A DNA stretch of 64,000 nucleotides from Phycisphaerae bacterium (lineage in GTDB: Bacteria > Planctomycetota > Phycisphaerae > UBA1845 > Fen-1342), in NCBI GenBank assembly GCA_030428945.1, contig JAUIEC010000001.1, positions 468,438-532,437 on the forward strand. The letters are read 5' to 3'. The notes under the pieces were generated by a model. The model did not search any database. It worked only from the letters and a program-made list of their open reading frames with translations, and had not been told where the DNA came from. Positions 24,126 through 61,630 of the stretch are shown piece by piece. The position numbers were made by a program, and so were the translations under genes. Positions within the stretch are counted from its first letter, which is position 1; each line of letters opens with the position of its first letter.

Positions 24126-26099
24126 ATGCCCGATGAGCCGCAGACGTTCCGCTATCCGCTGCAGGCGGACGGCAACTTCCTGGCCCAGACGAACGCCCAC
24201 GTGGGCGTGTACCGTTCGAGCGACGACGCCAGTTACGCGGTCGCCCGCGAGATGGCCGACCTGATCCGCGAGAAGTCGGCGGCCGGGGGCAAGGCGGTGC
24301 TGGGGCTGGCGACCGGTTCGACGCCGACGCGGGTGTACGACGAACTGATCCGGATGCATCGCGACGAGGGGCTTTCGTTCAGGAGCGTGGTCACGTTCAA
24401 CCTGGACGAGTACTGGCCGATCGAGCCGACCGCGCTGCAGAGCTACGTGCGGTTCATGCGCGAGATGCTGTTCGATCACGTCGACATCCTGCCGGAGAAC
24501 GTGCATGTGCCGAACGGGCAACTGGCCCGCGAGGACATCGCCGCGTACTGCGACGAGTACGAGCGGCGGATCGACGAGGCCGGCGGCATCGACTACCAGA
24601 TCCTGGGCGTGGGCCGCACGGGGCACATCGGTTTCAACGAGCCCGGTTCGCCGCGCGAGAGCCGCACGCGACTGATCACGCTCGACAAGGTGACCCGCCT
24701 GGACGCGGCCAGCGACTTCTTCGGCGAATGGCAGGTTCCGCGGCAGGCGATCACGATGGGGGTCGGGACGATCCTCTCGGCCCGCCGGGTGGCGCTGCTG
24801 GCGTTCGGCGAGGGCAAGGCCCGCATCCTGCGGCAGGCGATCGAGGAGCCCGTCACCAACACGGTCGCCGCCAGTTTCCTGCAGCAGCATCCCAACGCGA
24901 GTTTCTTCCTGGACCCGGCCGCGGCGAGTCAGTTGACGCCGGTGGCGACGCCGTGGCTGCTGGGCCCGATCAGCGCGTACGGGCAGGAGTGGGACCGGGC
25001 CAACACGCGCCGCGCGGTCATCTGGCTGAGCGAGAAGGTCGAGAAGCCGATCCTGAAGCTGGTCGAAGAGGACTACAACGAACACGGTCTGCAGGAACTG
25101 ATTTCGGCTCGCGGGGCGGCCTACGACATCAACATCGAGGTCTTCAAGACGATGAGCCGGACGATCACGGGCTGGCCGGGCGGCAAGCCGGGTCGGCCGC
25201 GACGCGACGGGGGCGACGATCCGTTCCCGAAGCGGGTGATCGTCTTCAGTCCGCACCCGGACGACGACGTGATCTCGATGGGCGGCACGTTCATCCGCCT
25301 GTGCGACCAGGGGCACGAGGTGCACGTCGCCTACCAGACGTCGGGCAACATCGCCGTCTGGGATGACGAGGCCGTCCGGCACACGGACTTCGTGGCCGAG
25401 TTCTGCCGGGCGTTCGAGATGGTCGACGAGACGGAAGTGCTGCGGATCGAGGAGGGCATTCGGGCGTTCCTGCGGGACAAGGCCCCCGGGGAGGTTGACA
25501 GCGAAGCGCTGCGGCGGGTCAAGACGATGATCCGGCGGACCGAGGCCCGCGCGGCGGCCCTGTTCTGCGGCGTCAGGCCCGAGCGGATTCACTTCCTGGA
25601 TCTGCCGTTCTACGAGACCGGGCGGGTTCGCAAGAAGCCGCTGGGCGAGGACGACCTGCAGATCACGATTGACCTGCTGGAGCGGGTCAAGCCGCACCAG
25701 GTCTACGCGGCCGGCGACCTGTCGGATCCGCACGGCACGCACCGGGTCTGCCTGGCGGCGATCGAGGGGGCGTTTGAACGGATCGCCGATCGTCCGTGGG
25801 TGCGGGACTGCGCGGTGCTGCACTACCGCGGGGCGTGGCAGGAATGGGAGCCGCACGAGATCGACATGGCGGTCCCGATCAGCCCGGACGAGGTCGGCCG
25901 CAAGCGGCGGGCGATCTTCAAGCACGAGTCGCAGAAGGACGCGGCGCTGTTCCCGGGACCGTGGGACCAACGCGAGTTCTGGAAGCGGGCCGAGGACCGC
26001 AACCGCGAGACGGCCGAAGCCTATGACCGGCTGGGCCTGCCGGAATACGAAGCGATCGAAGCGTTCGTGATCCGCAAGCCGGTCGAAGTGCACGAGTGA
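24126..26099 (+). CDS. nagB: Glucosamine-6-phosphate deaminase fused to a PIG-L (LmbE-like) deacetylase domain
   Basis: The 657 residues join two enzymes. The N-terminal NagB domain (about 25-300) has LATGSTP (62-67), FNLDEYW (91-97) and the GVGRTGHIGFNEPGS catalytic loop. It isomerises and deaminates glucosamine-6-phosphate to fructose-6-phosphate plus ammonia. The C-terminal domain, from about residue 365, has the PIG-L zinc motif FSPHPDDDVISMGG and a late DPHGTHR histidine region, as in N-acetylglucosaminyl deacetylases. This architecture is known in Bacteroidetes and some planctomycetes. GGAG precedes ATG 24126. It ends VEVHE at a stop that is itself part of a GAGTGAGC repeat. Confidence 0.9.
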   Translation: MPDEPQTFRYPLQADGNFLAQTNAHVGVYRSSDDASYAVAREMADLIREKSAAGGKAVLGLATGSTPTRVYDELIRMHRDEGLSFRSVVTFNLDEYWPIEPTALQSYVRFMREMLFDHVDILPENVHVPNGQLAREDIAAYCDEYERRIDEAGGIDYQILGVGRTGHIGFNEPGSPRESRTRLITLDKVTRLDAASDFFGEWQVPRQAITMGVGTILSARRVALLAFGEGKARILRQAIEEPVTNTVAASFLQQHPNASFFLDPAAASQLTPVATPWLLGPISAYGQEWDRANTRRAVIWLSEKVEKPILKLVEEDYNEHGLQELISARGAAYDINIEVFKTMSRTITGWPGGKPGRPRRDGGDDPFPKRVIVFSPHPDDDVISMGGTFIRLCDQGHEVHVAYQTSGNIAVWDDEAVRHTDFVAEFCRAFEMVDETEVLRIEEGIRAFLRDKAPGEVDSEALRRVKTMIRRTEARAAALFCGVRPERIHFLDLPFYETGRVRKKPLGEDDLQITIDLLERVKPHQVYAAGDLSDPHGTHRVCLAAIEGAFERIADRPWVRDCAVLHYRGAWQEWEPHEIDMAVPISPDEVGRKRRAIFKHESQKDAALFPGPWDQREFWKRAEDRNRETAEAYDRLGLPEYEAIEAFVIRKPVEVHE

Positions 26100-26178
26100 G
26101 CAAGTGAGCAGGTGAGCAAGTAAGCAAGTGAGCAAGTAAGCAGGTGAGCACGTAAGCAAGTGAGCAAGTGAGCACGTG
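26096..26178. repeat. Family E octamer tract (AAGTGAGC/AAGTAAGC)
   Basis: GAGTGAGCAAGTGAGCAGG and ten or so further octamers run directly out of the nagB stop codon. They are purine-rich in the sense direction of nagB. Confidence 0.7.
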
Positions 26179-26186
26179 CGCAGCGC

Positions 26187-26270
26187 CGTAGGGTGCGTCA
26201 TCGACGCGGCAGACCGCGCTGACCTGCTGCCGGGGTGCTTCAGGCGTCGATGCCGCACCGCGTGGCAACT
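26187..26270. repeat. REP-like element, family A, copy 2
   Basis: CGTAGGGTGCGTCATCGACGC at one end and GGCGTCGATGCCGCACCGC at the other, in inverted orientation relative to copy 1. The rest of the gap to 26374 holds a GGGAGC octamer tract at 26330-26366. Confidence 0.7.
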
Positions 26271-26374
26271 TCGTCGGTCGCCGGGGTCAACCCGCGCACT
26301 GCTCAAGAGCCCTGGACGAGCCGCCCCGCTCTTTCCCCTCGCTCCCTCGCTCCCTAGCTCCCTTCCCCGGGGTG

Positions 26375-27160
26375 CTAGAGCTTTCCCCGTTCCAGTGTCA
26401 GCACGCGGTCGGCGAATTCGGCTACGCCGGGGTCGTGGGTCACCATCACGATGGTCTGGCCTTCCTTGTGCAGGCCGCTGAGCAGTTCCATGATCTTGCG
26501 GCCGGCGGCGGCGTCGAGGTTGCCGGTCGGCTCGTCGGCGAACAGGATCCGCGGCTTGTGCACCAGGGCCCGGGCGATCGCGACCCGCTGGCGTTCGCCG
26601 CCGGACAGTTCGTTGGGGCGATGCTTCATCCGCTCGCCGAGGCCGACCCGTTCCAGGATCGCGGCGGCGTCTTGGCGGGCGGCCTCCCGACGGGCGAACC
26701 AGGCCCGGGTCGAGGCGGCCACCATCCGCGGAAGCAGCACGTTTTCGAGGACGCTCAGTTCCGGCAGCAGGTGGTAGAACTGGAAGACGAAGCCGAACTG
26801 CCGTCGGCGGAGTCCGTTGCGTCGTTTCTCGAACGGCGACAGGAAGTCGAGCAGGCGGATGGCCGTGCGTCGCGCGGACTCCGGTGCGAACACGTCCTGC
26901 CCGTCGAACCGGACCTGCCCGCGCTGCGGGACGTCGAGCGCCCCGAGCACGTGCAGCAGGGTGCTCTTGCCGCTGCCGGACTTGCCCATGATGCCGACGA
27001 ACTCGCCGTCGGCCACGTGCAGGCTGCAGTCGGTCAGCACGTTCAGTTTGACCTGTCCGAGCTGGTACGTGCGGTGGATGCCGTCGGCCTGCAGCAGGGC
27101 GTCCGGGTTGGCAGCGCCGGTGGTGTCCTCCGGGCGGGTGGTCGGGGCGGCGTTACTCAT
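26375..27160 (-). CDS. lolD: LolD-type ABC transporter ATPase
   Basis: ATPase of a LolCDE/MacB-like exporter that extracts lipoproteins or other substrates from the inner membrane. The 261 residues have Walker A GKSGSGKST (59-67), a long insertion after the A-loop (FAPESARRTAIRLLDFLSP), ABC signature LSGGERQR and Walker B ILFADEPTG. It overlaps the permease gene upstream by 8 nt, so the two are coupled. The gene symbol rests on the pairing and the family; other FtsX-type exporters are possible. Confidence 0.85.
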   Translation of the reverse strand: MSNAAPTTRPEDTTGAANPDALLQADGIHRTYQLGQVKLNVLTDCSLHVADGEFVGIMGKSGSGKSTLLHVLGALDVPQRGQVRFDGQDVFAPESARRTAIRLLDFLSPFEKRRNGLRRRQFGFVFQFYHLLPELSVLENVLLPRMVAASTRAWFARREAARQDAAAILERVGLGERMKHRPNELSGGERQRVAIARALVHKPRILFADEPTGNLDAAAGRKIMELLSGLHKEGQTIVMVTHDPGVAEFADRVLTLERGKL

Positions 27161-31438: not shown

Positions 31439-31756
31439 ATGGCTGCCAAGACGATCATGGTGGACATGGACGGGGTGCTGAGCACCGAGGAACGCGTTTT
31501 TGACAGGCCGCTGGCCCGCCCGATCGAGGGGGCGCGGGAAGGGCTGGCGAAACTGAAGGCGGCCGGTCACACGATCGTGATCTACACCGCCCGGGGGTGG
31601 GCCGAATACAACGTGACGAAGGCATGGCTGGACCAGCACGAGATGCCCTACGACGCGATCCACATGGGCAAGCCGATCGCCCACGTCTGGATCGACGACC
31701 GGGCGATCCGCTTCCGCAACTGGGAACAGGCGGCCGCGGAAGTGGAGGAGTTCTGA
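31439..31756 (+). CDS. Small HAD-superfamily phosphatase-like protein
   Basis: The 105-residue protein is a capless HAD domain. It has the DxD nucleophile pair D9-x-D11 (VDMDGVL), a Thr motif (VIYTARG) and WIDDRAIRF with a DD for metal binding. I chose ATG 31439 because GAGGAGG lies 6 nt upstream; an earlier TTG/GTG at 31391 would add 16 residues. It resembles small phosphatases of capsule or sugar-nucleotide gene clusters, but no such cluster is present. The stop is followed directly by a long GGGAGC octamer tract. Confidence 0.8.
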   Translation: MAAKTIMVDMDGVLSTEERVFDRPLARPIEGAREGLAKLKAAGHTIVIYTARGWAEYNVTKAWLDQHEMPYDAIHMGKPIAHVWIDDRAIRFRNWEQAAAEVEEF

Positions 31757-31871
31757 GGAGGGAGCGAGGGAGCAAGGGAGCGAGGGAGCAAGAGAGCAGG
31801 GGAGCCAGGGAGCGAGGGAGCAAGGGAGCAAGGGAGCGAGGGAGCGAGGGAGCGAGGGCGGGGGAGCGAGC
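31757..31871. repeat. Family D octamer tract (GGGAGCGA/GGGAGCAA), the longest
   Basis: About 14 tandem octamer units follow directly after the HAD stop codon, over 115 nt. It is the longest such tract in the window. It lies in the 383-nt gap 31757-32139, which contains only repeats. Confidence 0.75.
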
Positions 31872-31897
31872 CAGACCAAGGGACATGGAACACGCGG

Positions 31898-31982
31898 CGT
31901 AGGGTGCGTCATCGACGCGGGAGCCCGCGGGTTCGTTCGTTGGAGGGCGCTTCGGGCGTCGATGCCGCACCGCGTGGCAGCT
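31898..31982. repeat. REP-like element, family A, copy 3
   Basis: CGTAGGGTGCGTCATCGACGC to CGTCGATGCCGCACCGC, same orientation as copy 2. Beyond it, 31983-32139 has no gene that I can support. Confidence 0.7.
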
Positions 31983-32139
31983 TCGCGCGTCGCGAACGTA
32001 CGCCGCCACGTGGCAGCCTCGTCGACCGCCGGGGCAATCTGCGAGGGGAAGGCTGCTCGAGCGCAGCGTCACGGTCATTCCGCGGGCGTGGAAGGCGGAT
32101 CGTCCGGCTGGATTACCCCGGGCCGAGTTCCCCGGTTCC

Positions 32140-37935: not shown

Positions 37936-39072
37936 ATGCGCACGCTCCTGATGGTCCTGGCCGGCCTGATGCTGGTCGGCTGCGCGCCGGATGACACTCG
38001 CATCTCCATGACCCAGCTTGAACAGATGGAAGCCGAGATGGCCGAGGCCGAGCCGGCGACGGTCAGCCGTGGCCAACTGGAACTGGCCGAGGTCAAGCCG
38101 TTCCGTGCTTCGCCCGGGGACGTGCTGCAGATCGTGTTGATCGGGCTGGACGAGGAGGACGCGCTCAAGCCGACGCAACTGCTGGCGCGCGTCACGCGCG
38201 AGGGCACCGTCCGCCTGCCGCTGGTCGGACAGGTGACCGTGTCCGGTCGGCCGCTGGTCGAGATCGAGGCGGCGATCGTCGCGGCCTACGTGGATGCGCA
38301 ACTGTTCAAGACGCTGACGGTGCACACGACGGTGGCGGAGGCGGGTTCGGTCACCGTGCTGGTCAACGGTGCGGCCGGTCGGCGGGGGATGGTCAGCCTG
38401 CCGACGAACAAGCGGAACCTGCTGTATGCCCTGGAACAGGCGGACGGCTTCACGGGCGCGGCTTCGGGGGTGGTGCTGGTGCAGCATGCCAGCAGCAAGC
38501 GTGAGCCCGAGCGGTACGACCTGAACAACATTCACGACATGCGACGGGCGATGACGTCGCGTCCGCTGGATTCGGGGGCGGTGATCACGGTCGAGGCGGG
38601 TGAGGCGCCGGCCGTGTACGTGACCGGGCTGGTCAACACGCCGGGTCCGGTGCTGCTGGGCGAGAACAGCCGCATCTCGGTGATGCAGGCGCTGTCGGCG
38701 GGATCGGGCGTGTTGGACTTCCTCGAGCCGAAGGAAGCGACGTTGTGGCGGCGTCTGCCGGACGGGCAGCGCGTGCGGGTCAGGCTGGCGCTGGACGAGA
38801 TCATGTCGGGTCAGGCCCCGGACGTGGCGCTGCACGCGGGCGACATCCTGGACGTGCCGCACACGCTCGAGACGCGAGCCCGGCAGTGGTTCGTCGAGAA
38901 CGTGCGGCTCGGTCCCTTCGGCGTGACGGCGGTCTACGACCCGCTGGCTGACCGCCGGGCGCGGATCGTCAGCGACAACAACAACAACGGCAACCTGCTG
39001 CAGTCGGTCTTCCTGAGCGGCCTGAACTCGGCGATTCCGACCCTGATTCAGCCTTCGGTGGTGGCGCCGTAA
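37936..39072 (+). CDS. Polysaccharide biosynthesis/export lipoprotein (Wza-like)
   Basis: The 378-residue lipoprotein has the signal MRTLLMVLAGLMLVGC (Cys16). The poly_export domain is SPGDVLQIVLIGLDE... LPLVGQVTVSGRPLVEIE, followed by SLBB-like repeats (VYVTGLVNTPGPVLLGE, ISVMQALSAGSG). Wza-type proteins form the outer-membrane polysaccharide export channel. The tail after 350 is Asn-rich (DNNNNGNLL) and hydrophobic. I chose ATG 37936 over TTG 37927 because it gives a clean lipoprotein signal. No glycosyltransferase, Wzc or Wzy gene is adjacent. The stop is followed by GGGAACA heptamers. Confidence 0.88.
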   Translation: MRTLLMVLAGLMLVGCAPDDTRISMTQLEQMEAEMAEAEPATVSRGQLELAEVKPFRASPGDVLQIVLIGLDEEDALKPTQLLARVTREGTVRLPLVGQVTVSGRPLVEIEAAIVAAYVDAQLFKTLTVHTTVAEAGSVTVLVNGAAGRRGMVSLPTNKRNLLYALEQADGFTGAASGVVLVQHASSKREPERYDLNNIHDMRRAMTSRPLDSGAVITVEAGEAPAVYVTGLVNTPGPVLLGENSRISVMQALSAGSGVLDFLEPKEATLWRRLPDGQRVRVRLALDEIMSGQAPDVALHAGDILDVPHTLETRARQWFVENVRLGPFGVTAVYDPLADRRARIVSDNNNNGNLLQSVFLSGLNSAIPTLIQPSVVAP

Positions 39073-39075
39073 AGA

Positions 39076-39100
39076 AGGGAACAGGGAACAGGGAACAGGG
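39076..39100. repeat. Family G heptamer tract (GGGAACA)
   Basis: Four tandem GGGAACA heptamers follow the export-gene stop. Similar tracts lie at 51596, 60050 and 61506. This begins the 364-nt gap 39073-39436, which holds only repeats and the cysC terminator. Confidence 0.65.
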
Positions 39101-39358: not shown

Positions 39359-39436
39359 CGTGATCTCGCGGTGAGGCGGAGCAGGGGGCGGACCCTCTTT
39401 CACTCCTTCACCCATTCACGTTTTCACCGGCGCAGC

Positions 39437-41882: not shown

Positions 41883-41945
41883 CTAAGTAAGCAAGTAAGC
41901 AAGTAAGCAAGTGAGCAAGTAAGCAAGTCAGCAAGTCAGCAAGTC
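41881..41945. repeat. Family E octamer tract (AAGTAAGC)
   Basis: Eight tandem octamers begin at the trmB stop region: GTAACTAAGTAAGCAAGTAAGC and onward. Confidence 0.7.
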
Positions 41946-41977: not shown

Positions 41978-42060
41978 ATCTCGCTCCCTCGCCCCTCGCT
42001 TACTTGCTCCCTCGCTCCCTCGCTCCCTTGCTCCCTTGCTCCCTCACTTACTTGCTCCCT
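41978..42060. repeat. Family D tract, pyrimidine strand, upstream of the coiled-coil gene
   Basis: CTCGCTCCCTCGCTCCCTTGCTCCCT repeats interspersed with TTACTTGC, opposite in strand to the trmB-side tract, so the gap could fold back on itself. Confidence 0.65.
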
Positions 42061-43137: not shown

Positions 43138-43304
43138 AGGGAGCAAGGGAGCGAGGGAGCGAGGGAGCGAGGGGGCGTGAATCGTCCTTCACTCACTCTT
43201 TCATCCACTCATCTTTCCACCTGCGGTGCGCAGCGAGACGGTGAATGGGTCAAGCGGCCAGCGCGCCAGAACGACCTCCTTCACCCATCCACTCTTTCAC
43301 ATGT
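43138..43304. repeat. Mixed family D and family F repeats
   Basis: GGGAGCAAGGGAGCGAGGGAGC follows the coiled-coil stop. After it come TTCACTCACTCTTTCATCC and a second CCTTCACCCATCCACTCTTTCAC tract, which runs up to the radical SAM gene stop. Confidence 0.65.
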
Positions 43305-44329: not shown

Positions 44330-44376
44330 GGGGACCAGGGAGCAAGGGAGCGAGGGAGCGAGGGAGCGAGGGGGGC
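44330..44376. repeat. Family D octamer tract upstream of the radical SAM gene
   Basis: CAGGGAGCAAGGGAGCGAGGG repeats, pyrimidine-rich on the radical SAM mRNA side. Confidence 0.6.
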
Positions 44377-45760: not shown

Positions 45761-45785
45761 GTCGGGATCGGCCTGCTAACTCAAA

Positions 45786-45813
45786 CACCACTGCGAGAAT
45801 CGCAGTGGCACAC
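45786..45813. repeat. Palindromic element, family C
   Basis: CACCACTGCGAGAATCGCAGTGGC. On the minus strand it is followed by TGTTTGAGTT and could terminate rny transcripts. A short AAGTAAGC tract (45828-45850) runs into the rny stop. Confidence 0.65.
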
Positions 45814-45849
45814 GGCGCGCGATCGGCCTTGCTTACTTGCTGACTCGCG

Positions 45850-49533: not shown

Positions 49534-50847
49534 TCACTCGCTCCCTGGCTCCTTCGTTCCCTCGCCCCCTCCTTCGCCGCCCTCGCTCGCTTCCCCGAGC
49601 AGCACCTCCCACGCGCCCTCGCTCCAGCCGAGCAGGCGGCGGCCGTTCAGGTAGAGGGCCGGTACGGCCGTGACGCCGGTCTGATGACCGGCCGCAATGT
49701 CTTCCCGCAGTTGCTCGGTTGCGGCGGTGTCGAGCAGGGCGGACCAGGCGTCGTGGTCCCAGCCCTGTGCCGCGGCCAGCGTGCGGGCTTCGCGGTCGTT
49801 CAGCGGACGGCCACGCTGGTAGAGGGCGGTCTTGATCGCCCGGAACGCGTCGGGTCCGGCCAGGGCGCGGGCCGCTTCGGCCTGCACGGCCGCCTGGCAG
49901 GCGCCGGGATGCAGGCTGCGTTGCAGGTCGGGGTTGCAGGCGTGGTCGAGCGGGAACTGGCGGAAGTCGACGCGCAGCCTTTGCGGGTAGCGCTCGAGGG
50001 CGGCGCGAATCGCGCGGTCGGCCTCGCGGCAGTTCGGGCAGGCGAAGTCGAGGAACGCGACCAGCGTGTGCGGCGCATCGGGCGGGCCGAACCAGGCGGG
50101 CCGGCTGCGGGGCGGGATCTCGACCCGCTCCTGCTGCCGGTACTTCCAGACGATGTAGGCGGGGTCCTCGATGACCCGCGCGTAGGCCCCGGCGACCTGT
50201 CTGGTGAGGGCGCCCTGCACCTGCATCAGTCCGACCGTCAGGTGCAGCAGGAACAGGAAGCCGCCGCCCATGAACGTCGCGATCACCAGTCGGCCACGCG
50301 GGTGCGGCTCATACGGCAGCGCTTCGCCGCGCCATGGAAAGGCGGCGATCGTCGCCAGGCCGATCAGCAGGTTGGTGACATGCACGGCGACGCACCCGGC
50401 GCACCACTGCTTCAGCGTGCCGGCCATCAGCAGCGTGTACTGGGCCGAGGCGAGCAGCCCCAGGGCGACGACGGCGACGATCACGCTGTGCCAGGCCCGC
50501 CGACTGCGGGTCGGGCAGCCGATCAGCAGGAACCAGAAACCGACGAACGCGAAGTAGGCCATCCCGAAAACCGAGACCGGCATGCGGGCGCCGCTGCCTG
50601 GCGAGATCGCCACGCCGCCCCACGGCGAGCCGAGCACACTGCCGCACGGCCCGTCGGTGGCGGTGTCGCAGAGGGCGCCGAGCAGGGGATTGCTGGGGGC
50701 GACCTGAAAGCTCAGGCGATACAGATCGAAACTCAGCCACCAGCCAAGCGCCGCCAGCAGCACGGTCACCCAGCGCAGCCAGCGCCGCGGCACGGCCGGG
50801 ATCATCGGTGCCGCGTGTTCAGGGGTTGTCGTTTCGGACGTACTCAT
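49534..50847 (-). CDS. VKOR-DsbA fusion protein (disulfide-bond formation)
   Basis: The 437-residue protein has a VKOR-like membrane domain with about five helices. It carries loop cysteines C60 and C68 and the redox centre C149-A-G-C152. A thioredoxin/DsbA domain follows, with C270-P-N-C273 in FLDFACPNCREADRAI. Such fusions oxidise exported proteins and reoxidise the DsbA part via quinone. I chose ATG 50847 because GGAG is 7 nt upstream; the frame continues to 51051 but that part is repeat-derived. The last residues (EGGEGGGEGTKEPGSE) are encoded by GGGAGCGA-type repeats, so the C-terminal tail was probably added by repeat expansion. Confidence 0.9.
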   Translation of the reverse strand: MSTSETTTPEHAAPMIPAVPRRWLRWVTVLLAALGWWLSFDLYRLSFQVAPSNPLLGALCDTATDGPCGSVLGSPWGGVAISPGSGARMPVSVFGMAYFAFVGFWFLLIGCPTRSRRAWHSVIVAVVALGLLASAQYTLLMAGTLKQWCAGCVAVHVTNLLIGLATIAAFPWRGEALPYEPHPRGRLVIATFMGGGFLFLLHLTVGLMQVQGALTRQVAGAYARVIEDPAYIVWKYRQQERVEIPPRSRPAWFGPPDAPHTLVAFLDFACPNCREADRAIRAALERYPQRLRVDFRQFPLDHACNPDLQRSLHPGACQAAVQAEAARALAGPDAFRAIKTALYQRGRPLNDREARTLAAAQGWDHDAWSALLDTAATEQLREDIAAGHQTGVTAVPALYLNGRRLLGWSEGAWEVLLGEASEGGEGGGEGTKEPGSE

Positions 50848-50892
50848 CGGCGCGCTCCGCAGGGCTGACCGCGCAAGAGTAGAAGCGCGGAA

Positions 50893-50951
50893 GCACGGGA
50901 GCAAGGGAGCCCGAAGAAGGGAGCAAGGGAGCGAGGGAGCGAGGGAGCGAG
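50893..50951. repeat. Family D octamer tract upstream of the VKOR-DsbA gene
   Basis: AAGGGAGCAAGGGAGCGAGG repeated. The 784-nt gap 50848-51631 is the longest non-coding stretch in the window and consists almost entirely of repeats. Confidence 0.7.
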
Positions 50952-50997
50952 GGAATGCCCGGGGCGTGTGCCACCTCGGCGAGTGGGGACGTGACAG

Positions 50998-51135
50998 ATT
51001 GAAAGAGTGGAAGAGTGGAAGAGTGGAAGAGTGAAAGAGTCTGGGTGTCAAAGAGTCAAAGAGTGGAAGCGCGAAGGAGTCCGCCTGCCGGGCGCGTTTC
51101 CTCCTTCACTCTTCCACCCATTCACTTTTCCACCC
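50998..51135. repeat. Family F inverted block, long copy
   Basis: GAAAGAGTGGAAGAGTGGAAG repeats, then a GCCTGCCGGGCGCG centre, then TTCCTCCTTCACTCTTCCACCC. The two arms are complementary and could form a stem of 30-40 bp. Confidence 0.7.
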
Positions 51136-51200
51136 GCGCAGCGCCGGGGGCCCCTCCTTGAGCGAGCGCGGCGAGCGGAAGGGTGGGCGACTGCGTTGGA
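51135..51200. repeat. REP-like element, family B, copy 4
   Basis: GCGCAGCGCCGGGGGCCCCTCC to GAGCGGAAGGGTGGGCGACTGC; almost identical in layout to copy 5 at 59872. Confidence 0.7.
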
Positions 51201-51237
51201 CCGCGACGCGAAAGAACGCCCGCCAGGCTGACGAGCC

Positions 51238-51313
51238 GAGCGGTGCGGCATCGACGCCCGCGGCCTCCTCGGCCGATGTGATCGCGGACTGCCGCGTCGA
51301 TGACGCACCCTAC
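51238..51313. repeat. REP-like element, family A, copy 4
   Basis: GAGCGGTGCGGCATCGACGC to GCGTCGATGACGCACCCTAC. It is directly preceded by a family B copy, as at 59872-60042, so A and B behave as a composite. Confidence 0.75.
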
Positions 51314-51324
51314 AGATTCACTTG

Positions 51325-51540
51325 CTCCCGCGCTCCTCGCACCCCACGGATTCCCTCGCCCCGGCGCTCCTCGGACCCTACAAATTCCCGCGCTCTTCGC
51401 ACCCCACGGATTCTCTCGCTCCCTCGCTCCCGCGGACCCTACGAATTCCCGCGCTCGTCGCACCAACCGGATTCTCTCGCTCCCTCGCTCCCTCGTTCCC
51501 TCGCTCCCTGGCTCTCTGGCTCCCCGGCTCCCTCCCCCCG
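51325..51540. repeat. Tandem CGCGCTCxTCGCACCCC repeat block
   Basis: Four degenerate units containing CGCTCCTCGCACCCCACGG or CGCTCTTCGCACCCCACGG alternate with GGGAGCGA-complement octamers (CTCGCTCC). The unit is about 35-45 bp. Confidence 0.55.
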
Positions 51541-51563
51541 CGCGAGCGAAGGGGCCGGCGCGC

Positions 51564-51595
51564 AAAAAAAACAGCGGCACCAGGCGGCGCCGCTG
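51564..51595 (-). terminator. Rho-independent terminator of the rpsB-tsf operon
   Basis: On the minus strand CAGCGGC and GCCGCTG form a 7-bp stem followed by eight T. It lies 37 nt after the tsf stop. Confidence 0.85.
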
Positions 51596-51620
51596 TTCCC
51601 TGTTCCCTGTTCCCTGTTCC
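51596..51620. repeat. Family G heptamer tract
   Basis: TTCCCTG units between the tsf stop and its terminator. Confidence 0.55.
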
Positions 51621-51631
51621 CGGCTGCCTTC

Positions 51632-52459
51632 TCAGAGACCGCCGACTTCGTAGCGGATCATCTTCGTCACGGTCAGGTCCGGGTTGACGGCCTTCAGCGC
51701 GTCCTTGACGGCGATCTTGTCGTCCTTGACGAACGGCTGATCCAGCAGGACGAACTCCGAGTACCAGCGGTCCATCTTGCCGCCGATGATCTTCTCGGCG
51801 ATCTCGGGCGGCTTGCCCTTGGCCGCTTCGGCGTACTCGGCCCGGGCCTTTTCGACCTCGGCCGGGTCGGCGCCGCTGCGATCCATCGCCGGCGGGTTCA
51901 TCGCGGTCACATGCATGCAGACGCCGGCGCCGACTTCCTCGGGGCACGCGGCGTTGAAGCCGAGCAGGGCGCCCTTCTGGCCGTCGAAGTGCACGTAGTG
52001 CCCGGCGTGCCCTTCGATCCGGTCGATCCGGGCGATCTGCATGTTCTCACGCAGCTTGTTGAACACGTCCGTCATGTACTGGCCCAGCGTCTGGCCGGGG
52101 TTGTCGATCAGGGCCTGGTCCTTGATGTTCTCGGGGGTCGCGTCGTCGAGCAGGGCGGCCTGCTTGGCGATCGTGTTCGCCAGCGCCATGAAGTCGTCGG
52201 TCGAGGCCACCGGGGCGGTCTCGCAGCGGACTTCGACGATCGCGGCCTTGCCGGCGGCGGCGTCGACATAGACGGCGATCCGGCCTTCGCCGGCCTCGCG
52301 GTCCATGAACTTGGCCAGCTTGTCGCCCGCTTTCTCGCGGAGCAGCTCGATCGCGCGGGCTTCGTCGCCCTCGGCCTGTTCGAGCGCCTTCTTGCAGTCC
52401 ATCATCGGCAGGTCGGTCTTCTCGCGAAGCGCCTTGACCATCGCGGCGGAAATCGCCAT
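51632..52459 (-). CDS. tsf: Translation elongation factor Ts
   Basis: EF-Ts exchanges GDP for GTP on EF-Tu. The 275-residue protein has an N-terminal UBA-like TS domain (MVKALREKTDLPMMDCKKAL). A dimerisation/core domain (FMDREAGEGRIAVYVD, then GAGVCMHVTAMNP) continues to the C-terminus. GAGGAGA 9 nt upstream of ATG 52459 supports the start. It lies downstream of rpsB with a 133-nt gap that contains a 10-bp GC hairpin (52521-52544). A terminator with an eight-T tail follows. Confidence 0.95.
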   Translation of the reverse strand: MAISAAMVKALREKTDLPMMDCKKALEQAEGDEARAIELLREKAGDKLAKFMDREAGEGRIAVYVDAAAGKAAIVEVRCETAPVASTDDFMALANTIAKQAALLDDATPENIKDQALIDNPGQTLGQYMTDVFNKLRENMQIARIDRIEGHAGHYVHFDGQKGALLGFNAACPEEVGAGVCMHVTAMNPPAMDRSGADPAEVEKARAEYAEAAKGKPPEIAEKIIGGKMDRWYSEFVLLDQPFVKDDKIAVKDALKAVNPDLTVTKMIRYEVGGL

Positions 52460-54772: not shown

Positions 54773-54804
54773 GAGCGAGGGAGCCAGGGAGCGAGGGAGC
54801 GAGG
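54773..54804. repeat. Family D octamer tract after fliM
   Basis: AGGAGCGAGGGAGCCAGGGAGC on the sense strand right after the stop. An inverse CTCGCTCCCTTGCTCCC tract lies at 54926-54966 before the OPT gene, so the two can pair. Confidence 0.65.
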
Positions 54805-55019
54805 AGCATCCCGGGCTCCTTCGGCCGCGTGACCGCGGCACCCGGTTTTGCCTCCCGAGCCCTGACGCGCGCGGGTCCCCCGATCCTCTCCGCGCTGTCG
54901 CCCACGCCCGATCCGGTACCCCGCCCTTGCTCCCTCGCTCCCTTGCTCCCTCGCTCCCTCTTTCCCTAGACTGTGTCTCCGTTCCGAACTGAAGCCGAGA
55001 CAACCTGGGGTACGCGACG

Positions 55020-57509
55020 GTGAGCAGCACGCCCAATCCGCCGGACTATGAACCGACCGAACCGACGACCGAGGCGCCGCCGGAGGGGGCCGCGGGCGAG
55101 GAACTCGAGGACGAACTGACGCCGCGGCCGCTGGACCTGCACTCGCCGCAGTTCACGCTGCGGGCGGTGCTGACCGGGATGCTGCTGGCGGCGATCCTGA
55201 GTGTCTGCAACGTGTATGCCGGGCTGAAGGTCGGCTGGTCGTTCAACATGTCGATCGTGGCCGCCCTGGCGAGCTACGGGATCTGGCAGGGGCTGCACGT
55301 CACGCTCGGGACCCGCAAGTGGGGGATCCTCGAGAACAACATCAACCAGACCGCCTGTTCGTCGGGGGCGGCGGTGTCGTCGGCCGGACTGGTAGCGCCG
55401 ATTCCGGCCCTGGCACTGCTGACCGGGCAGACGCTGTCGTGGCATTACCTGGCGCTGTGGTGTTTCTCGGTGATGCTGGTCGGCATCACGGTCGCGATCG
55501 CGATCCGTCGGCAGATGCTGATCGTCGACAAGCTGCCGTTCGCGTTCGGGATTGCCAGCGCCGAGACGCTCAAGCAGATGTACGGCGACGGGGCCGAGGC
55601 GATGAAACGGCTCGGCATGCTGGTCTTCGGGGCCCTGACGGCCGGGCTGGTGCAGTTGCTCTCAAAGCTTGGCATCTGGTGGAAGACGCTGTACGTCAAG
55701 GCGTCGATCAAGGGCTACTCGGTCAAGGCGCTCGGCTTCGGTCTGGACCCGACGCTGTTGTTCTATGGCGTCGGCGGGCTGATCGGAATCCGGGCCGGCG
55801 TCTCGATGCTGATCGGGGCCGTGCTGGGCTACGCGATCCTGAGTCCCTACATGATCGACGCGGGCGGGGCGCGACTCGAAGCACGCGTCGGACTGGCGGA
55901 ACTGCCGCCGGAAATCAGCGCCCAGTTCAAGAAACCGCCCGAAGGCTTCCTCGAATACAACCGCAACCGTCGACGGCTGGAGTGGAAGGGCGTCATGACG
56001 GCCGAGCAGCGTGACGAACTGCTGGCCCTCTACGACGACGCCGCCTACCAGGCCGCCCTGCAGAAACTGTACGTCGCCTCGCAACTCGAGGTCGTCCGTT
56101 CCTTCGACGCCTTCGCCGAAGAAGTTCGAATCGTCGATCAGGACGTTTCCGCCGCGGGCGTCAACAGGCTGGGGACCCCGGAAGACGTCGAGACGACCGC
56201 CCGTGCCAACATGACGCTGCCTGCCGAGCGGTTCGCCTCGCGGATGGATGCGGAGTTCTCGGCGATCGAGGCCGGAGGCATGACGGACGAGCAGGTGGCC
56301 GAGTACCTGGCGCTGCGGGCCGGACTCGAAGACCAGTTGGAACAGTCGATCAAGAGCGTGCACGTCGCCAGTCAGCCCGAGGTCCAGCAGGCCCGGGCCG
56401 CGTTCGCCGACGCCGTCCGCGGCGTCGACCGCGAGGCCGAGGTCGTCTCCGTCGCGCCGCCCGCCCCGAGCTTCGGCTCGCTGGTCAAGTGGCTGCTGTG
56501 GCCGGGCGTCACGTTGATGGTCGTGTCGTCGCTGGTCTCGTTTTCGTTCTCGTGGCGGAGCGTGCTGGCCGCCATGGGGATGGGCGGCAGCGGCGAGAAG
56601 CAGCCTTCGGCCGCCGAGCGCGGCGAGGTTTCGCGCAGCGTGTTCCTGCTGGCACTCGTCGTCGTGCTGGCGACGAGTACGTACCTGCAGGTGTCGTTCT
56701 TCGCGATTGTCTGGTGGGCGGCCATCCTGGGCGTGCTGCTGACGTTCGTCCTGGCGCTGGTCGCCGCGCGGGTCGCCGGCGAGACGAGCATCACGCCGGT
56801 CGGTGCCATGGGCAAGGTCACCCAACTGTTCTTCGGAGCGCTGATCCCGGGCGAGGTCGCCCCGAACCTGATGGCCGCCAACGTGACCGGTGGTGCCGCC
56901 AGCCAGTGTGCCGACCTGCTGCACGACATGCGCTGCGGTCACCTGCTGGGCGCGTCGCCGCGGCTGCAGGCCCTCGCGCAGGTCTGCGGGGCGTTCGCCG
57001 GCGCGATGGCCGGTTCGGCCGTCTACCTTCTGCTGATTCACGACCCGCAGGAGCAGTTGCTGACGCAGGACTGGCCGGGACCGGCCGTGGTCACCTGGAA
57101 GGCGGTGGCCGAACTGTTCGCGATCGGCTGGGACGCTCTGCCGCAGTATGCGATGCTGGCCAGCATCATCGCGGCCGTGATCGGTGTGATCTTCCCCGTG
57201 CTGGAAAAGACGCTGCCGAAACGGGCCGCGGCGTTCGTGCCGAGTGCGGCCAGCATCGGTCTGGCGCTGGTGGTTCCGGCCAACTACGCGATCACGATGT
57301 TCGCCGGCGCGCTGCTGGCGTGGCTGCTGTCGCACGTGTTCAAGAAGTGGTCGACCCGCTTCCTGGTCACGCTGTGTGCGGGCATCGTGGCGGGCGACAC
57401 GCTGGTCGGCGCCGGTTGGGGCATCTTCGTTCAGACCGACTGGATGGACATCTGGGACAACATCTACCAGCAGATCACGGCGGGCGCCGGCGTTGGCGGC
57501 GATTCGTAG
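55020..57509 (+). CDS. OPT-family oligopeptide/metal-chelate transporter
   Basis: OPT transporters import oligopeptides or metal-siderophore-type complexes with protons. The 829-residue protein has about 14-16 hydrophobic segments. The OPT blocks NVYAGLKVGWSFNMSIVAALAS and ENNINQTACSSGAAVSS lie near the N-terminus. GAMGKVTQLFFGALIPG and ANVTGGAASQCADLLHDMRCG lie in the second half. A long soluble central insert (about 285-475, very Ala/Glu/Arg-rich) faces the cytoplasm. Start GTG 55020. The M29 aminopeptidase begins 30 nt after its stop, which suggests that imported peptides are trimmed by it. Confidence 0.9.
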   Translation: MSSTPNPPDYEPTEPTTEAPPEGAAGEELEDELTPRPLDLHSPQFTLRAVLTGMLLAAILSVCNVYAGLKVGWSFNMSIVAALASYGIWQGLHVTLGTRKWGILENNINQTACSSGAAVSSAGLVAPIPALALLTGQTLSWHYLALWCFSVMLVGITVAIAIRRQMLIVDKLPFAFGIASAETLKQMYGDGAEAMKRLGMLVFGALTAGLVQLLSKLGIWWKTLYVKASIKGYSVKALGFGLDPTLLFYGVGGLIGIRAGVSMLIGAVLGYAILSPYMIDAGGARLEARVGLAELPPEISAQFKKPPEGFLEYNRNRRRLEWKGVMTAEQRDELLALYDDAAYQAALQKLYVASQLEVVRSFDAFAEEVRIVDQDVSAAGVNRLGTPEDVETTARANMTLPAERFASRMDAEFSAIEAGGMTDEQVAEYLALRAGLEDQLEQSIKSVHVASQPEVQQARAAFADAVRGVDREAEVVSVAPPAPSFGSLVKWLLWPGVTLMVVSSLVSFSFSWRSVLAAMGMGGSGEKQPSAAERGEVSRSVFLLALVVVLATSTYLQVSFFAIVWWAAILGVLLTFVLALVAARVAGETSITPVGAMGKVTQLFFGALIPGEVAPNLMAANVTGGAASQCADLLHDMRCGHLLGASPRLQALAQVCGAFAGAMAGSAVYLLLIHDPQEQLLTQDWPGPAVVTWKAVAELFAIGWDALPQYAMLASIIAAVIGVIFPVLEKTLPKRAAAFVPSAASIGLALVVPANYAITMFAGALLAWLLSHVFKKWSTRFLVTLCAGIVAGDTLVGAGWGIFVQTDWMDIWDNIYQQITAGAGVGGDS

Positions 57510-57539: not shown

Positions 57540-58661
57540 ATGCTTGATCCACGCATGACCAGACTGGCCGAGACGCTGGTGAACTACTCGTGCGGGCTGC
57601 AGCCCGGCGAGAAGATCCTGATCGAGGCGATCGATATTCCGCACGAGTTCACGGCCGAGGCCGTCCGCGTCGCCCGGGCGGCCGGGGGTGACCCGCTCGT
57701 GCTGCTGAAGAGCAACCAGATCAACCGGGCCCTGATGCTGGCCGGCAGCGAATCGCAGTGGCAGACGATCAGCGAGATCGAGGCCCGGCAGATGCGGAGC
57801 GTGCAGTGCTACCTGGGCGTCCGCGGCAACCCCAACATCGCCGAACTGTCCGACGTGCCCGGCGACAAGATGAAACTCTACGAGTCGACCGTCTGGAAGC
57901 AGGTCCACGGCGAGATCCGCATCAAGGACACCCGCTGGTGCGTGCTCCGCTGGCCGAGCCCCAGCATGGCCCAGATGGCCGACATGTCGACCGAGGCCTT
58001 CGAAGAGTTCTACTTCAACGTCTGCACGATGGACTACGCGAAGATGGCCCGCGGGATGGAGCATCTCAAGGCCCGCATGCAGAAGACCGACAAGGTCCGC
58101 CTGCTCGGCCCGAACGACACCGACCTGACCTTCAGCATCAAGGACATCCCCGCCATTCCGTGTGCCGGCAAGATGAACATCCCCGACGGCGAGGTCTTCA
58201 CCGCCCCGGTCCGCGAAAGCGTCAACGGCGTGATCCGCTACAACATGCCGAGCATCTACCGCGGCGTGACCCACGATGACGTCCGCCTCGTCTTCCGCGA
58301 CGGCAAGATCGTCGAAGCGACCAGCTCGAACACCAAGAAGATCGAAGAGGTCTTCAACAGCGACGAAGGCGCCCGCTACGTCGGCGAATTCGCGATCGGC
58401 GTCAACCCGTACATCACGCGTCCGATGAAGGACATCCTCTTCGACGAGAAGATCGCCGGCAGCATTCACTTCACGCCCGGCCGGGCCTACGACGAGGCCT
58501 GGAACGGCAACACCAGCGAGATCCACTGGGACCTGGTGATGAGCCAGCGGCCCGAGTACGGCGGCGGCGAGATGTACTTCGACGACCAGCTCGTTCGCAA
58601 GGACGGCCTGTTCACGGTCGACGATCTGAAGGCACTGAACCCGGATGAACTGAAGAAGTGA
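57540..58661 (+). CDS. Aminopeptidase, M29 (AmpS/thermophilic aminopeptidase) family
   Basis: M29 aminopeptidases release N-terminal residues and use two metal ions. The 373 residues begin LAETLVNYSCGLQPGEKILIEA, typical of the family. They contain GPNDTDLTFSIKDIPAI, GEVFTAPVRESVNGVI and the C-terminal metal-site blocks GRAYDEAWNGNTSEIHWDLV and GGEMYFDDQLV. I chose the second Met (57540) because GGGGAG is then 6 nt upstream; 57537 is equally in frame. It is likely cotranscribed with the OPT transporter. The stop leads into GTGAGC-type repeats. Confidence 0.9.
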   Translation: MLDPRMTRLAETLVNYSCGLQPGEKILIEAIDIPHEFTAEAVRVARAAGGDPLVLLKSNQINRALMLAGSESQWQTISEIEARQMRSVQCYLGVRGNPNIAELSDVPGDKMKLYESTVWKQVHGEIRIKDTRWCVLRWPSPSMAQMADMSTEAFEEFYFNVCTMDYAKMARGMEHLKARMQKTDKVRLLGPNDTDLTFSIKDIPAIPCAGKMNIPDGEVFTAPVRESVNGVIRYNMPSIYRGVTHDDVRLVFRDGKIVEATSSNTKKIEEVFNSDEGARYVGEFAIGVNPYITRPMKDILFDEKIAGSIHFTPGRAYDEAWNGNTSEIHWDLVMSQRPEYGGGEMYFDDQLVRKDGLFTVDDLKALNPDELKK

Positions 58662-58745
58662 GCACGCAAGCACGTGAGCAAGTCAGCAGGGTTCGGCCGC
58701 GAGGCAATCCTCGCTGACTTGCTTACTTGGTGACTTGTTTACTCG
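58660..58745. repeat. Family E repeat pair, inverted
   Basis: AAGTGAGCACGCAAGCACG after the aminopeptidase stop, and CTCGCTGACTTGCTTACTTGG about 40 nt later, are complementary in style; the gap could fold. Confidence 0.65.
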
Positions 58746-59792: not shown

Positions 59793-59872
59793 GGGCGTGA
59801 AAAGGGGCGCCTGCCGGAAGCCTGCCGGAAGGGCGTCTCCTCTTCACCCTTTCACTCTTTCACCCTTTCACC
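59774..59872. repeat. Family F inverted block, overlapping a stop codon
   Basis: GTTGAAAAAGTGAAAGAGTGA contains the GH26 stop. A GCCTGCCGGAAGCCTGCCGG centre and a TTCACCCTTTCACTCTTTCACC arm follow. Confidence 0.75.
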
Positions 59873-59940
59873 CGCGCAGCGCCGGGTGCCCCATCCTTAG
59901 AGCGAGCGCAGCGAGCGGCAGGGTGGGGGACTGCGTTGAG
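59872..59940. repeat. REP-like element, family B, copy 5
   Basis: GCGCAGCGCCGGGTGCCCCATCC to GAGCGGCAGGGTGGGGGACTGC. Confidence 0.75.
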
Positions 59941-59966
59941 GCCTGAGACCCGGGCCGGCCTGAGCC

Positions 59967-60042
59967 GAGCGGTGCGGCATCGACGCCTGGATCCTCCGCG
60001 GTCGATGCAGGCGTGGTCTGCCGCATCGATGACGCACCCTAC
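59967..60042. repeat. REP-like element, family A, copy 5
   Basis: GAGCGGTGCGGCATCGACGC to GCATCGATGACGCACCCTAC, preceded by family B as at 51135-51313. Then TTCCCTG heptamers (60050-60095) and GCTCCCTCGCTCCCTGG octamers (60103-60135) fill the 394-nt gap. Confidence 0.75.
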
Positions 60043-60142
60043 AAGTCTGCTCCCTGTTCCCTGTTCCCTGTTCCCTGTTCCCGTTTCCCTGTTCCCTTCC
60101 CTTGCTCCCTCGCTCCCTGGCTCCCTCGCTCCCTTCGTGTGC

Positions 60143-60148
60143 TATACT
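60143..60148 (+). promoter_or_regulatory. Candidate -10 box of rnd
   Basis: TATACT 39 nt before ATG 60187, directly after a repeat tract. No -35 match at 17 nt. Confidence 0.35.
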
Positions 60149-60186
60149 GCTCCTTCGTCCGCTGACCCTTCAACTGGGACCTGTAC

Positions 60187-61374
60187 ATGTCTGACGTCCA
60201 GATCGTTCTCGACCAGGACCACCTGGCCGATTGCTGTGCCGCCTGGCGCGAGCAGGGCTGGTTCTGCTTCGACACCGAGTTCATCCGGGACGAGACCTTC
60301 GTGGCCGACCTGTGCCTCGTGCAGGTGCACGACGGGCAGGGGATCACCCTGATCGATCCGATGGTGCCGCTCGACATGGACCCCTTCTGGCAGCTCGTCA
60401 CGACCCCCGACGTCATGGCCGTCGTGCATGCCGGCAAGGAGGACTTCGACGTCTGCCTGCGGGCCACGGGCCATCCGCCGCGAAACGTCTTCGACGTGCA
60501 GATCGCCTCCGGCTTTGTCGGGGCCGGGTATCCGCTCAGCCTCGCCCGCCTCGTCCAGGCCCTGCTCAAGAAACGACTCAGCAAGGGGCAGACCCTGACC
60601 GACTGGGCCCGCCGACCGCTGACCGACGAACAACTGACCTACGCGGCCGACGACGTCCGCTACCTGCCCGCCCTGCACCGCAAGCTGACCGAACGGCTCG
60701 AGCGCAGCGGCCGGCTGGGCTGGGCGACCGAGGAGTTCGCCAAGTTCGAACGCCCCGAGATGTACCGGCCACCGACCGAAGACCGTCTGTTCAAGCTGAA
60801 GGGCAGCAAGCGGCTCGATGCCCTCGGGCTGGCGGTGCTGCGCGACCTGGTCGAGTGGCGCGAGGAGTGGGCGATCGAGAAGAACCGCCCGATCCGGGCG
60901 ATGGTCCGCGACGACGTCCTGGTCGAGATCGCCAAGCGCCGGCCGACGCGGATGGATCAGCTCGAAGTCCTCCGCGGCTTCCCGCAGGCCCGCAACCCGC
61001 GGATCGTCAAGGAGGTCCTGCGGCGGATCGAGCGGGCCCGCGAATCGGACCCGAAGTCGTGGCCGGCCCCGTACCAGCCGCGCGAGGACACGCCGATGAT
61101 CAAGGTCACGCTGGACCTGATGTCGGCCTTCCTGCGGGCGACCTGTCACGCCGAGCAGTTGGACGCCGAACTGGTCGGCAGCAGCCAGAAGCTCCGCGAT
61201 CTGCTCGATTACCTGCGCGAACCGGGCAGCGACGAGCCGCTCCTGATGCAGGGCTGGCGGGCCGAGTTCATCGGCCGACGCCTCGAAGACCTGCTCAACG
61301 GCCGCTGCGAACTGCACCTCTCCGGCGGCCCCCAGGACCCCCGCCTGCACGTCGTGTCCCACGACGCCGACTAG
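60187..61374 (+). CDS. rnd: Ribonuclease D
   Basis: RNase D trims 3' ends of tRNA precursors. The 395-residue protein has the DEDDy exonuclease domain (about 1-200): D29-x-E31 in CFDTEFIRDE, HAGKEDFDVCL and YAADDVRYLPALH. One or two HRDC domains follow (RPIRAMVRDDVLVEIAKRRP, about 220-300, and a second helical region later). GGGA precedes ATG 60187. It is probably a single-gene transcript. Confidence 0.92.
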   Translation: MSDVQIVLDQDHLADCCAAWREQGWFCFDTEFIRDETFVADLCLVQVHDGQGITLIDPMVPLDMDPFWQLVTTPDVMAVVHAGKEDFDVCLRATGHPPRNVFDVQIASGFVGAGYPLSLARLVQALLKKRLSKGQTLTDWARRPLTDEQLTYAADDVRYLPALHRKLTERLERSGRLGWATEEFAKFERPEMYRPPTEDRLFKLKGSKRLDALGLAVLRDLVEWREEWAIEKNRPIRAMVRDDVLVEIAKRRPTRMDQLEVLRGFPQARNPRIVKEVLRRIERARESDPKSWPAPYQPREDTPMIKVTLDLMSAFLRATCHAEQLDAELVGSSQKLRDLLDYLREPGSDEPLLMQGWRAEFIGRRLEDLLNGRCELHLSGGPQDPRLHVVSHDAD

Positions 61375-61388
61375 CCTGCGCTGCGCGG

Positions 61389-61470
61389 GTGGAAAGGTGG
61401 ATGGGTGAAAGGGTGAAGGAGGAGACACCCCTCCCGGCAGGCGGCCGTTCCCACGCTTTCAGGGTCCGAG
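61389..61470. repeat. Family F block
   Basis: GGTGGAAAGGTGGATGGGTGA, then a CTCCCGGCAGGCGG centre. GTTCCCTG heptamers (61506-61535) and CTCGCTCCCTCGCTCCC octamers (61537-61580) follow, ahead of yebC. Confidence 0.6.
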
Positions 61471-61630
61471 GATGGGCCGCCCGCGGTCCCGCGACTTGCT
61501 GTCCCTGTCCTGTTCCCTGTTCCCTGTTCCCTGTCCCTCGCTCCCTCGCTCCCTCGCTCCCTTGCTCCCTTCCTCCCTGACAAGTTATCCTCCGCCCCCT
61601 GAGAGTCTCCTGGTTTGCGAGGTTTGCGGC

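What the first reader, a model, noticed from the sequence alone, without database searches (positions are those of the whole stretch)
26096..61580. Intergenic regions are a mosaic of short-period purine-rich repeats
Seen: nearly every longer gap is built from tandem GGGAGCRA or AAGYRAGC octamers, GTGAAAGAGTGAA tracts and GGGAACA heptamers (longest at 31757-31871). The purine strand often follows a stop codon in sense, and the pyrimidine strand often precedes the next gene, so gaps like 54773-54966 and 41881-42060 can fold back. Exceptions exist: 9300 and 28870. Interpretation: transcript-end structures, supercoiling buffers or replication-slippage debris. I know of no named family for this mixture; heptameric STRR repeats of cyanobacteria are a loose analogue.
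Basis: partly seen in the sequence, partly recalled or inferred. Interest (0 to 1): 0.75.

Follow-up and report, generated by a model that had tools for sequence, protein, structure and literature searches.

The report
Repeat arrays marking gene borders
This bacterium's spacers between genes carry hundreds of short repeat arrays that start about nine bases after a gene's stop codon, or end just before a promoter, with the purine-rich strand always pointing away from the gene; a matching repeat class was described in Xanthomonas in 2015 without a known function, and the new detail (four-copy arrays, one free letter per repeat unit, promoter abutment) suggests one-way fences for transcription that can be tested.

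Summary
In 2.02 Mb of the 5.5-Mb genome, 7/8-bp purine arrays (GGGAGCVA, GGGAACV, AAGTVAGC, GTGAAAGR) occur in 76/121 convergent, 100/316 tandem and 17/172 divergent gaps of at least 150 bp. Polarity is nearly absolute: purine array left, pyrimidine array right in 91 gaps, the reverse in 1. Sense arrays start a median 9-12 bp after the stop codon for three of the four words. On the promoter side, 25 of 70 pyrimidine arrays end 6-11 bp before a -10 hexamer (1.4 expected). A relative in another genus repeats the rule with different words.

The class is not nameless. GGGNATC quadruplex repeats of Xanthomonas/Nostoc (Rehm 2015) share position, polarity, pairing and a four-copy preference; their function was left open. 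New here: non-quadruplex words obeying the same rule, promoter abutment, one free position per word with no correlation between neighbouring units (against slippage debris), and mostly unmatched arms with unique cores (against foldback elements or terminator hairpins).

Best reading, moderately likely: modules bordering transcription units whose G-rich strand is template only for RNA polymerase entering a unit, so they act as one-way fences. No expression data exist here.

The parts
17644..17683 (-). GGGAGCNA array, purine strand minus, directly at the stop of the minus gene 17683-18660
26102..26173 (+). AAGTRAGC array, sense, 2 bp after the stop of the plus gene 24126-26099 (Glucosamine_iso + PIG-L); the stop TGA lies inside a repeat unit
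26339..26354 (-). GGGAGCNA array, 20 bp after the stop of the minus ABC-transporter gene 26375-27160; partner arm in a convergent gap
31760..31869 (+). longest GGGAGCNA array (12 detected units), 3 bp after the stop of gene 31439-31756
39077..39097 (+). GGGAACA heptamer array, 4 bp after the stop of gene 37936-39072
39396..39411 (-). GTGAAAGR array, 25 bp after the stop of the minus gene 39437-40048
41885..41940 (+). AAGTRAGC array, 2 bp after the stop of methyltransferase gene 41292-41882
41981..42059 (-). GGGAGCNA/AAGTRAGC pyrimidine arm of the same gap (orientation of the next gene uncertain)
43139..43170 (+). GGGAGCNA array, four units, 5 bp after a called stop
43277..43300 (-). GTGAAAGR array, 9 bp after the stop of the minus gene 43310-44257
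44338..44369 (+). GGGAGCNA array, four units, 80 bp upstream of the start of the minus gene 43310-44257 (purine strand outward)
50897..50950 (+). GGGAGCNA array, 91 bp upstream of the start of the minus gene 49534-50805
51477..51524 (-). GGGAGCNA array in the 50806-51631 gap
51594..51621 (-). GGGAACA heptamer array, four units, 10 bp after the stop of the minus gene 51632-52459, between the stop and a hairpin with a T run
54779..54802 (+). GGGAGCNA array, 10 bp after the fliM stop
54927..54958 (-). GGGAGCNA array, four units, ending 8 bp before TAGACT (54967-54972), upstream of the OPT transporter gene 55020-57509
58656..58687 (+). AAGTRAGC array overlapping and supplying the stop of gene 57540-58661
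60055..60096 (-). GGGAACA heptamer array upstream of the RNase D-like gene 60187-61374
60102..60133 (-). GGGAGCNA array, four units, ending 9 bp before the -10-like TATACT (60143-60148)
60143..60148 (+). -10-like hexamer TATACT abutted by the array
61511..61531 (-). GGGAACA heptamer array
61538..61569 (-). GGGAGCNA array, four units, 16 bp before TATCCT (61586-61591)

Best explanation
The repeats are discrete modules that sit at the borders of transcription units. Shown by computation: they lie at the edge of the gap, between a border (stop codon or -10 promoter box) and a mostly unique core, and the purine strand reads away from the gene. Inferred: they are kept because they act as one-way transcription fences. 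RNA polymerase leaving a unit has the G-rich strand as non-template and makes purine RNA. RNA polymerase entering a unit from the flank (read-through reaching a promoter, antisense from a convergent neighbour) must use the G-rich strand as template and makes pyrimidine RNA. For the G-tract words a four-unit quadruplex on the template would block it; for all words the pyrimidine-RNA hybrid is weaker, and for most of them the C-rich, G-poor RNA could load Rho where Rho exists. How new arrays are written is unknown.
For: Polarity 91:1 whatever the gene orientation. All four words obey it and start a median 9, 10, 12 and 25 bp after stops. In convergent gaps with both arms each lies a median 9 bp from its own stop. 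25 of 70 start-side arrays end 6-11 bp before a -10-like hexamer, 1.4 expected. Sense arrays at 35% of convergent stops vs 15% of tandem stops (128/364 and 78/507, gaps of 60 bp or more). R and Y arms co-occur: odds ratio 7 convergent, 16 tandem, 259 divergent. Runs peak at four units for the two G-tract words only, at stops and at starts alike. One free position per word while the other seven of GGGAGCVA are about 98% fixed, with no neighbour correlation. Same rule with other words in G015. Purine-RNA hybrids stronger than pyrimidine-RNA hybrids for every word (parameters from memory). Rho present; intrinsic terminators found at only 25 of 871 stops. Outside support: 83% of Xanthomonas repeats kept in the same gene context between two species.
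Against: No RNA, termination or reporter data. Most relatives in the same family lack the GGGAGC word or carry few arrays, so the function cannot be essential. Divergent gaps also carry some pairs. AAGTVAGC and GTGAAAGR have no G tracts and no four-unit peak, so a quadruplex is not the common denominator. Nostoc shares the repeat kind, yet cyanobacteria lack Rho (abstract listed), so Rho is not universal to the class. AAGTAAGC has no YC dimer on its pyrimidine strand. Loops are almost as fixed as G tracts, which a pure quadruplex does not need. Neutral insertion limited by coding and promoter boundaries would give some of the same positions.
Confidence: 0.4

Rival explanations
1. REP-like selfish modules: short mobile or copied DNA that inserts next to stop codons and promoters because these are the tolerated sites, with no host function.
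For: A genome-wide vocabulary of nine words, lineage dialects, fairly constant module starts (GGAAGGGA.., [CG]AGTRAGC..) and stops supplied by the module. GTAG REPs behave alike: under 20 bp from 3' ends, rare in divergent gaps, often supplying TAG (PMC3733652). GTGAAAGR pairs recur with near-identical flanks at three loci.
Against: Y1_Tnp/RAYT is nearly absent: one marginal hit, among the fewest of 27 genomes. 56 of 70 cores are unique. Unit strings differ between loci, so whole arrays are not copied. Arrays are not palindromes.
Confidence: 0.25
2. Mutational filler: tandem expansion (slippage, perhaps helped by R-loops in untranslated outward RNA) that spreads until it meets coding or promoter sequence.
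For: Found only where DNA is free; purine RNA in the outward direction would favour R-loops; length variation in Xanthomonas.
Against: No correlation between neighbouring units, a four-copy peak for G-tract words, the same few words everywhere, polarity 91:1.
Confidence: 0.2
3. Fold-back elements or bidirectional terminator hairpins: the two arms are one unit that works by pairing.
For: Same-word arms in excess (convergent 21 vs 12.9, p 0.005; tandem 23 vs 12.2, p 0.0002); same-word units fold strongly, median z -5.6.
Against: About half of the pairs are mixed words and do not fold (z -0.6); 133 gaps have one arm and mostly no partner; cores are unique and no more folded than array-free gaps.
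Confidence: 0.1

Closest known systems
GGGNATC / GGGGA(T/C)T quadruplex-forming heptamer repeats of Xanthomonas and Nostoc (Rehm et al. 2015, PMC4692102)
   Same: Dispersed short G-rich tandem words in intergenic DNA; within 50 bp after stops on the sense strand or upstream of genes on the antisense strand; rare between divergent genes; inverted pairs (Xanthomonas); preference for four units; one degenerate position; function open.
   Different: Several words in one genome incl. octamers and words without G tracts; start-side arrays end just before the -10 box; free-position independence measured; much higher load (762 hits of one double word); Planctomycetota.
REP/BIME elements (GTAG and CGTC families, PMC3733652)
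   Same: High-copy intergenic repeats hugging 3' ends, rare in divergent gaps, sometimes supplying the stop codon.
   Different: Those are 20-40 bp palindromes tied to RAYT transposases; these are non-palindromic tandem arrays and RAYT is nearly absent here.
Cyanobacterial STRR heptamers
   Same: Short tandem words, 7 bp, intergenic (own knowledge).
Intrinsic terminators
   Same: Position after stops; matched arms can form a hairpin.
   Different: No T run; half of the pairs unmatched; long loops; a few gaps show a separate terminator hairpin beyond the array.

Membership tests
Rehm-type quadruplex repeats | G-tract word of 7-8 bp repeated in tandem, intergenic, genome-wide | tested here: met
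   GGGAGCVA and GGGAACV; AAGTVAGC and GTGAAAGR lack a G3 tract
Rehm-type quadruplex repeats | G-rich strand sense after stops, antisense upstream of starts, under-represented between divergent genes | tested here: met
Rehm-type quadruplex repeats | preference for four units | tested here: met
   peak at 4 for GGGAGCVA (31/64/16 at 3/4/5) and GGGAACV (25/38/7); not met for AAGTVAGC and GTGAAAGV
Rehm-type quadruplex repeats | forms G-quadruplex in vitro | not testable with these tools
   needs CD or melting of oligonucleotides
REP/BIME | 20-40 bp palindromic unit with GTAG or CGTC tag | tested here: not met
   arrays are non-palindromic tandem words; other dispersed palindromes in the gaps do contain GTAG
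REP/BIME | RAYT transposase in the genome | tested here: not met
   one marginal Y1_Tnp hit, 23.2 bits, E 2.5e-4
Fold-back or MITE element | conserved core between inverted ends | tested here: not met
   56 of 70 cores unique; exception: some GTGAAAGR pairs
Intrinsic terminator | GC-rich hairpin followed by T run | tested here: not met
   3 of 206 array-bearing stops vs 22 of 665 others have one
Cyanobacterial STRR | heptamer words as named in cyanobacteria | not tested
   no cyanobacterial genome compared here

The most novel reading that the evidence does not exclude
The arrays are written in trans by an unknown enzyme that adds about four copies of a 7- or 8-nt word from a template with one error-prone position, in the manner of telomerase, at gene borders. 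This would explain four-copy runs, one free letter per word, lack of neighbour correlation, shared words across loci and lineage dialects. The only reverse transcriptase found in the genome is a retron-type XIII enzyme, not linked to the arrays.
Probability: 0.07. Interest if true: 0.95.

Novelty: new variant of a known kind. Interest (0 to 1): 0.66.

Why it matters
A repeat class known for a decade without a function gets a sharper anatomy: borders of transcription units, both ends, fixed polarity, four copies, one free letter, several words. That turns 'what are these repeats for?' into a two-orientation reporter test. It also offers a cheap sequence mark for transcription-unit ends and promoters in high-GC, uncultured bacteria, and argues against dismissing such spacers as slippage debris.

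Tried and rejected
Slippage debris: rejected as main mode. Fold-back element or matched hairpin as general rule: rejected. RAYT-driven REP: transposase nearly absent. Quadruplex as the sole common feature: two words lack G tracts. Multi-frame stop barrier: AAGTRAGC and GTGAAAGA carry stops, GGGAGCRA and GGGAACA do not. Rho as sole reader: Rho is present here, but cyanobacteria lack it while Nostoc shares the class. Generic hairpins with purine 5' arms: weak trend only in convergent gaps, 0.67 in 13 strong hairpins. Position-biased decay of G tracts vs loops in GGGAGCVA: 4 vs 16, p 0.03, not seen in the heptamer. Transition/transversion test against palindromes: uninformative. Rfam: no match in the window. 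My first gene finder called shadow ORFs and was replaced; a chaining fault was fixed before the counts used here. An opposite-orientation array exists in Salinibacterium.
Full report
What was looked at. The window is C10:468438-532437 of a 5,497,002-bp, 33-contig genome. I assembled 2.02 Mb of it from 20-kb stretches, called genes with a small coding-potential model written for the purpose and classed 1040 gaps of 20 bp or more as convergent, tandem or divergent. Pfam agrees with most flanking genes checked, for example FliM, an OPT transporter, an ABC ATPase and an RNase D-like protein; the strand of the gene at 42.1-43.1 kb stays uncertain. Single gene calls may be wrong; the bulk statistics should be robust.

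The double word GGGAGCRAGGGAGCRA has 762 hits in this genome and 0-2 in each of 60 relatives. In a 392-genome sample of the phylum only the MAG MGR_bin416, from another family (its contigs show roughly 40-47% protein identity in the best matches), has more than a few.

The rule. In 91 gaps with both kinds of array the purine array is on the left and the pyrimidine array on the right, in one it is reversed, in tandem, convergent and divergent gaps alike. Put differently, the purine strand reads away from the nearest gene. After stops, sense coverage in the first 20 bp is 23.0% (convergent) and 9.5% (tandem), antisense 0.0% and 0.2%. All four words obey this; sense arrays of three words start a median 9-12 bp after the stop, GTGAAAGR 25 bp. 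In 47 convergent gaps with both arms each arm lies a median 9 bp from its own stop, and 31 have both within 25 bp. Arms therefore sit at the edges of the gap with other DNA between them. Of 70 cores tested, 56 have no relative in other gaps.

The promoter side is new. Arrays upstream of starts end 6-11 bp before a -10-like hexamer (TAnnnT, at least 4 of 6 matching TATAAT) in 25 of 70 cases; background predicts about 1.4. In the window, the array 60102-60133 is followed by ttcgtgtgc and TATACT. From memory, not checked here: bacterial promoters with symmetric -10 boxes can fire divergent transcripts starting about 18 bp away, close to where these arrays begin; so an array may open every untranslated transcript that leaves a unit.

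What an array is made of. 349 of 366 arrays of three or more copies are within one mismatch of nine words. Each word has one free position: in GGGAGC-V-A it is G 283, A 136, C 132, T 6, while 301 of 348 middle units match all seven other positions. Neighbouring units are not correlated at the free position (0.41 vs 0.40 after within-array shuffling), and strings differ between loci. Unit-by-unit duplication would leave runs of equal letters, and copying of whole arrays would leave repeated strings; neither is seen. Perfect runs peak at four for both G-tract words (GGGAGCVA 31/64/16 at 3/4/5; GGGAACV 25/38/7), at stops and at starts, but not for AAGTVAGC (28/12/5 at 2/3/4) or GTGAAAGV. [quoted passage not shown] T is avoided at the free position in all words; I have no explanation.

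Junctions. Many arrays start with GGAAGGGA or [CG]AGTRAGC, and the stop codon is often formed across the junction or lies in the first unit. Heptamer arrays prefer TAG stops, 27 of 41 against 352 of 1370 genes, p 5e-8. REP elements with GTAG termini also supply stops (PMC3733652).

Pairing of the arms. Arms of one gap share the word more often than chance (convergent 21 vs 12.9, tandem 23 vs 12.2), yet about half are mixed. Same-word units fold strongly (median z -5.6), mixed ones do not (-0.6). So hairpins are a frequent by-product or bonus, not the rule. Presence of the two arms in a gap is strongly linked (odds ratios 7, 16 and 259).

Other genomes. In 580 kb of G015 (same family, other genus) the words are GAGTAGC, GAATAGC, CACGGAGA and GAGGGATC; the order is R..Y in 9 gaps and never the reverse, sense arrays start a median 9 bp after stops, and 0 of 70 divergent gaps carry arrays. 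A Terracidiphilus MAG has a GGGAGCRA array on the sense strand about 11 bp after a stop. MGR_bin416 has GGGAGCRA/GGAAGCA and GGAGTGC pairs with the same polarity. One Salinibacterium array has the opposite orientation. The rule is general, the words are dialects.

What is known. Rehm et al. 2015 (PMC4692102) report for GGGNATC repeats in Xanthomonas and GGGGA(T/C)T in Nostoc: position within 50 bp after stops in sense or upstream in antisense, inverted pairs (common in Xanthomonas, few in Nostoc), rarity between divergent genes, a four-unit preference, quadruplex formation in vitro, 83% retention in the same gene context between two Xanthomonas species, and no identified function. The G-tract arrays here fit that class; the words without G tracts widen it.

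Mechanism. The symmetric polarity cannot come from a function tied to one direction of transcription alone, since it is the same at stops and starts. It fits the direction of invasion: polymerase entering a unit from the flank always has the G-rich strand as template. A template quadruplex would stop it (G-tract words), the pyrimidine RNA forms the weaker hybrid, and C-rich, G-poor RNA suits Rho (present; intrinsic terminators appear rare). These steps are inferred. Rivals are REP-like modules without function, mutational filling, and hairpin units; each explains part. What writes the arrays is open, and an unknown templated synthesis is the most novel reading that I cannot exclude.

Limits. 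One genome per species, no expression data, a home-made gene finder, motif-based promoters, hybrid energies and the divergent-promoter distance from memory.

Noticed in passing
window 26183-26268, 31895-31990, 17243-17682, 50806-51631, 59793-60186: Dispersed palindromes CGTAGGGTGCGTCATCGACGCGG...GCGTCGATGCCGCACCGCGTGGC (69-81 copies per half in 2 Mb) lie between the arms of some gaps; other gaps of the genome have TTGTGGCACAGGCGTCTCGCCTGTG-type palindromes (83 copies). They look like GTAG-type REPs although the genome has only one marginal Y1_Tnp protein.
   Followed up: partly
L071 13381-15178 (G000:C7): The only RVT_1 reverse transcriptase found in the genome, closest to PADLOC RT_XIII (retron type XIII), preceded by a near-perfect inverted repeat of about 18-20 bp (CCCGGTGCGTCACCTACG ... 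CGTAGGTGACGCACCGGG).
   Followed up: partly
2.02 Mb sample, stops with heptamer arrays: GGGAACA arrays sit preferentially after TAG stops (27 of 41 vs 352 of 1370 genes, p 5e-8); unexplained.
   Followed up: partly
window 51326-51492: A 61-bp unit repeated 2.8 times that itself contains octamers (CTCGCTCCC) and GGACCCTACAAAT-like stretches: a higher-order repeat built from the array words.
   Followed up: no
window 17567-17629: 21-bp GCTCAAAGATGGGGCACCCGG repeated three times next to an octamer array.
   Followed up: no
window 44258-45849: 1.6-kb stretch without a called gene although a 370-aa minus ORF (44454-45566) lies in it; may be a decaying or unusual gene.
   Followed up: no
gaps 224, 471 and 718 of the gap list printed: GTGAAAGA/TCTTTCAC pairs recur with near-identical flanks of roughly 100 bp at three loci: this word, unlike the others, behaves like a dispersed element.
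   Followed up: partly
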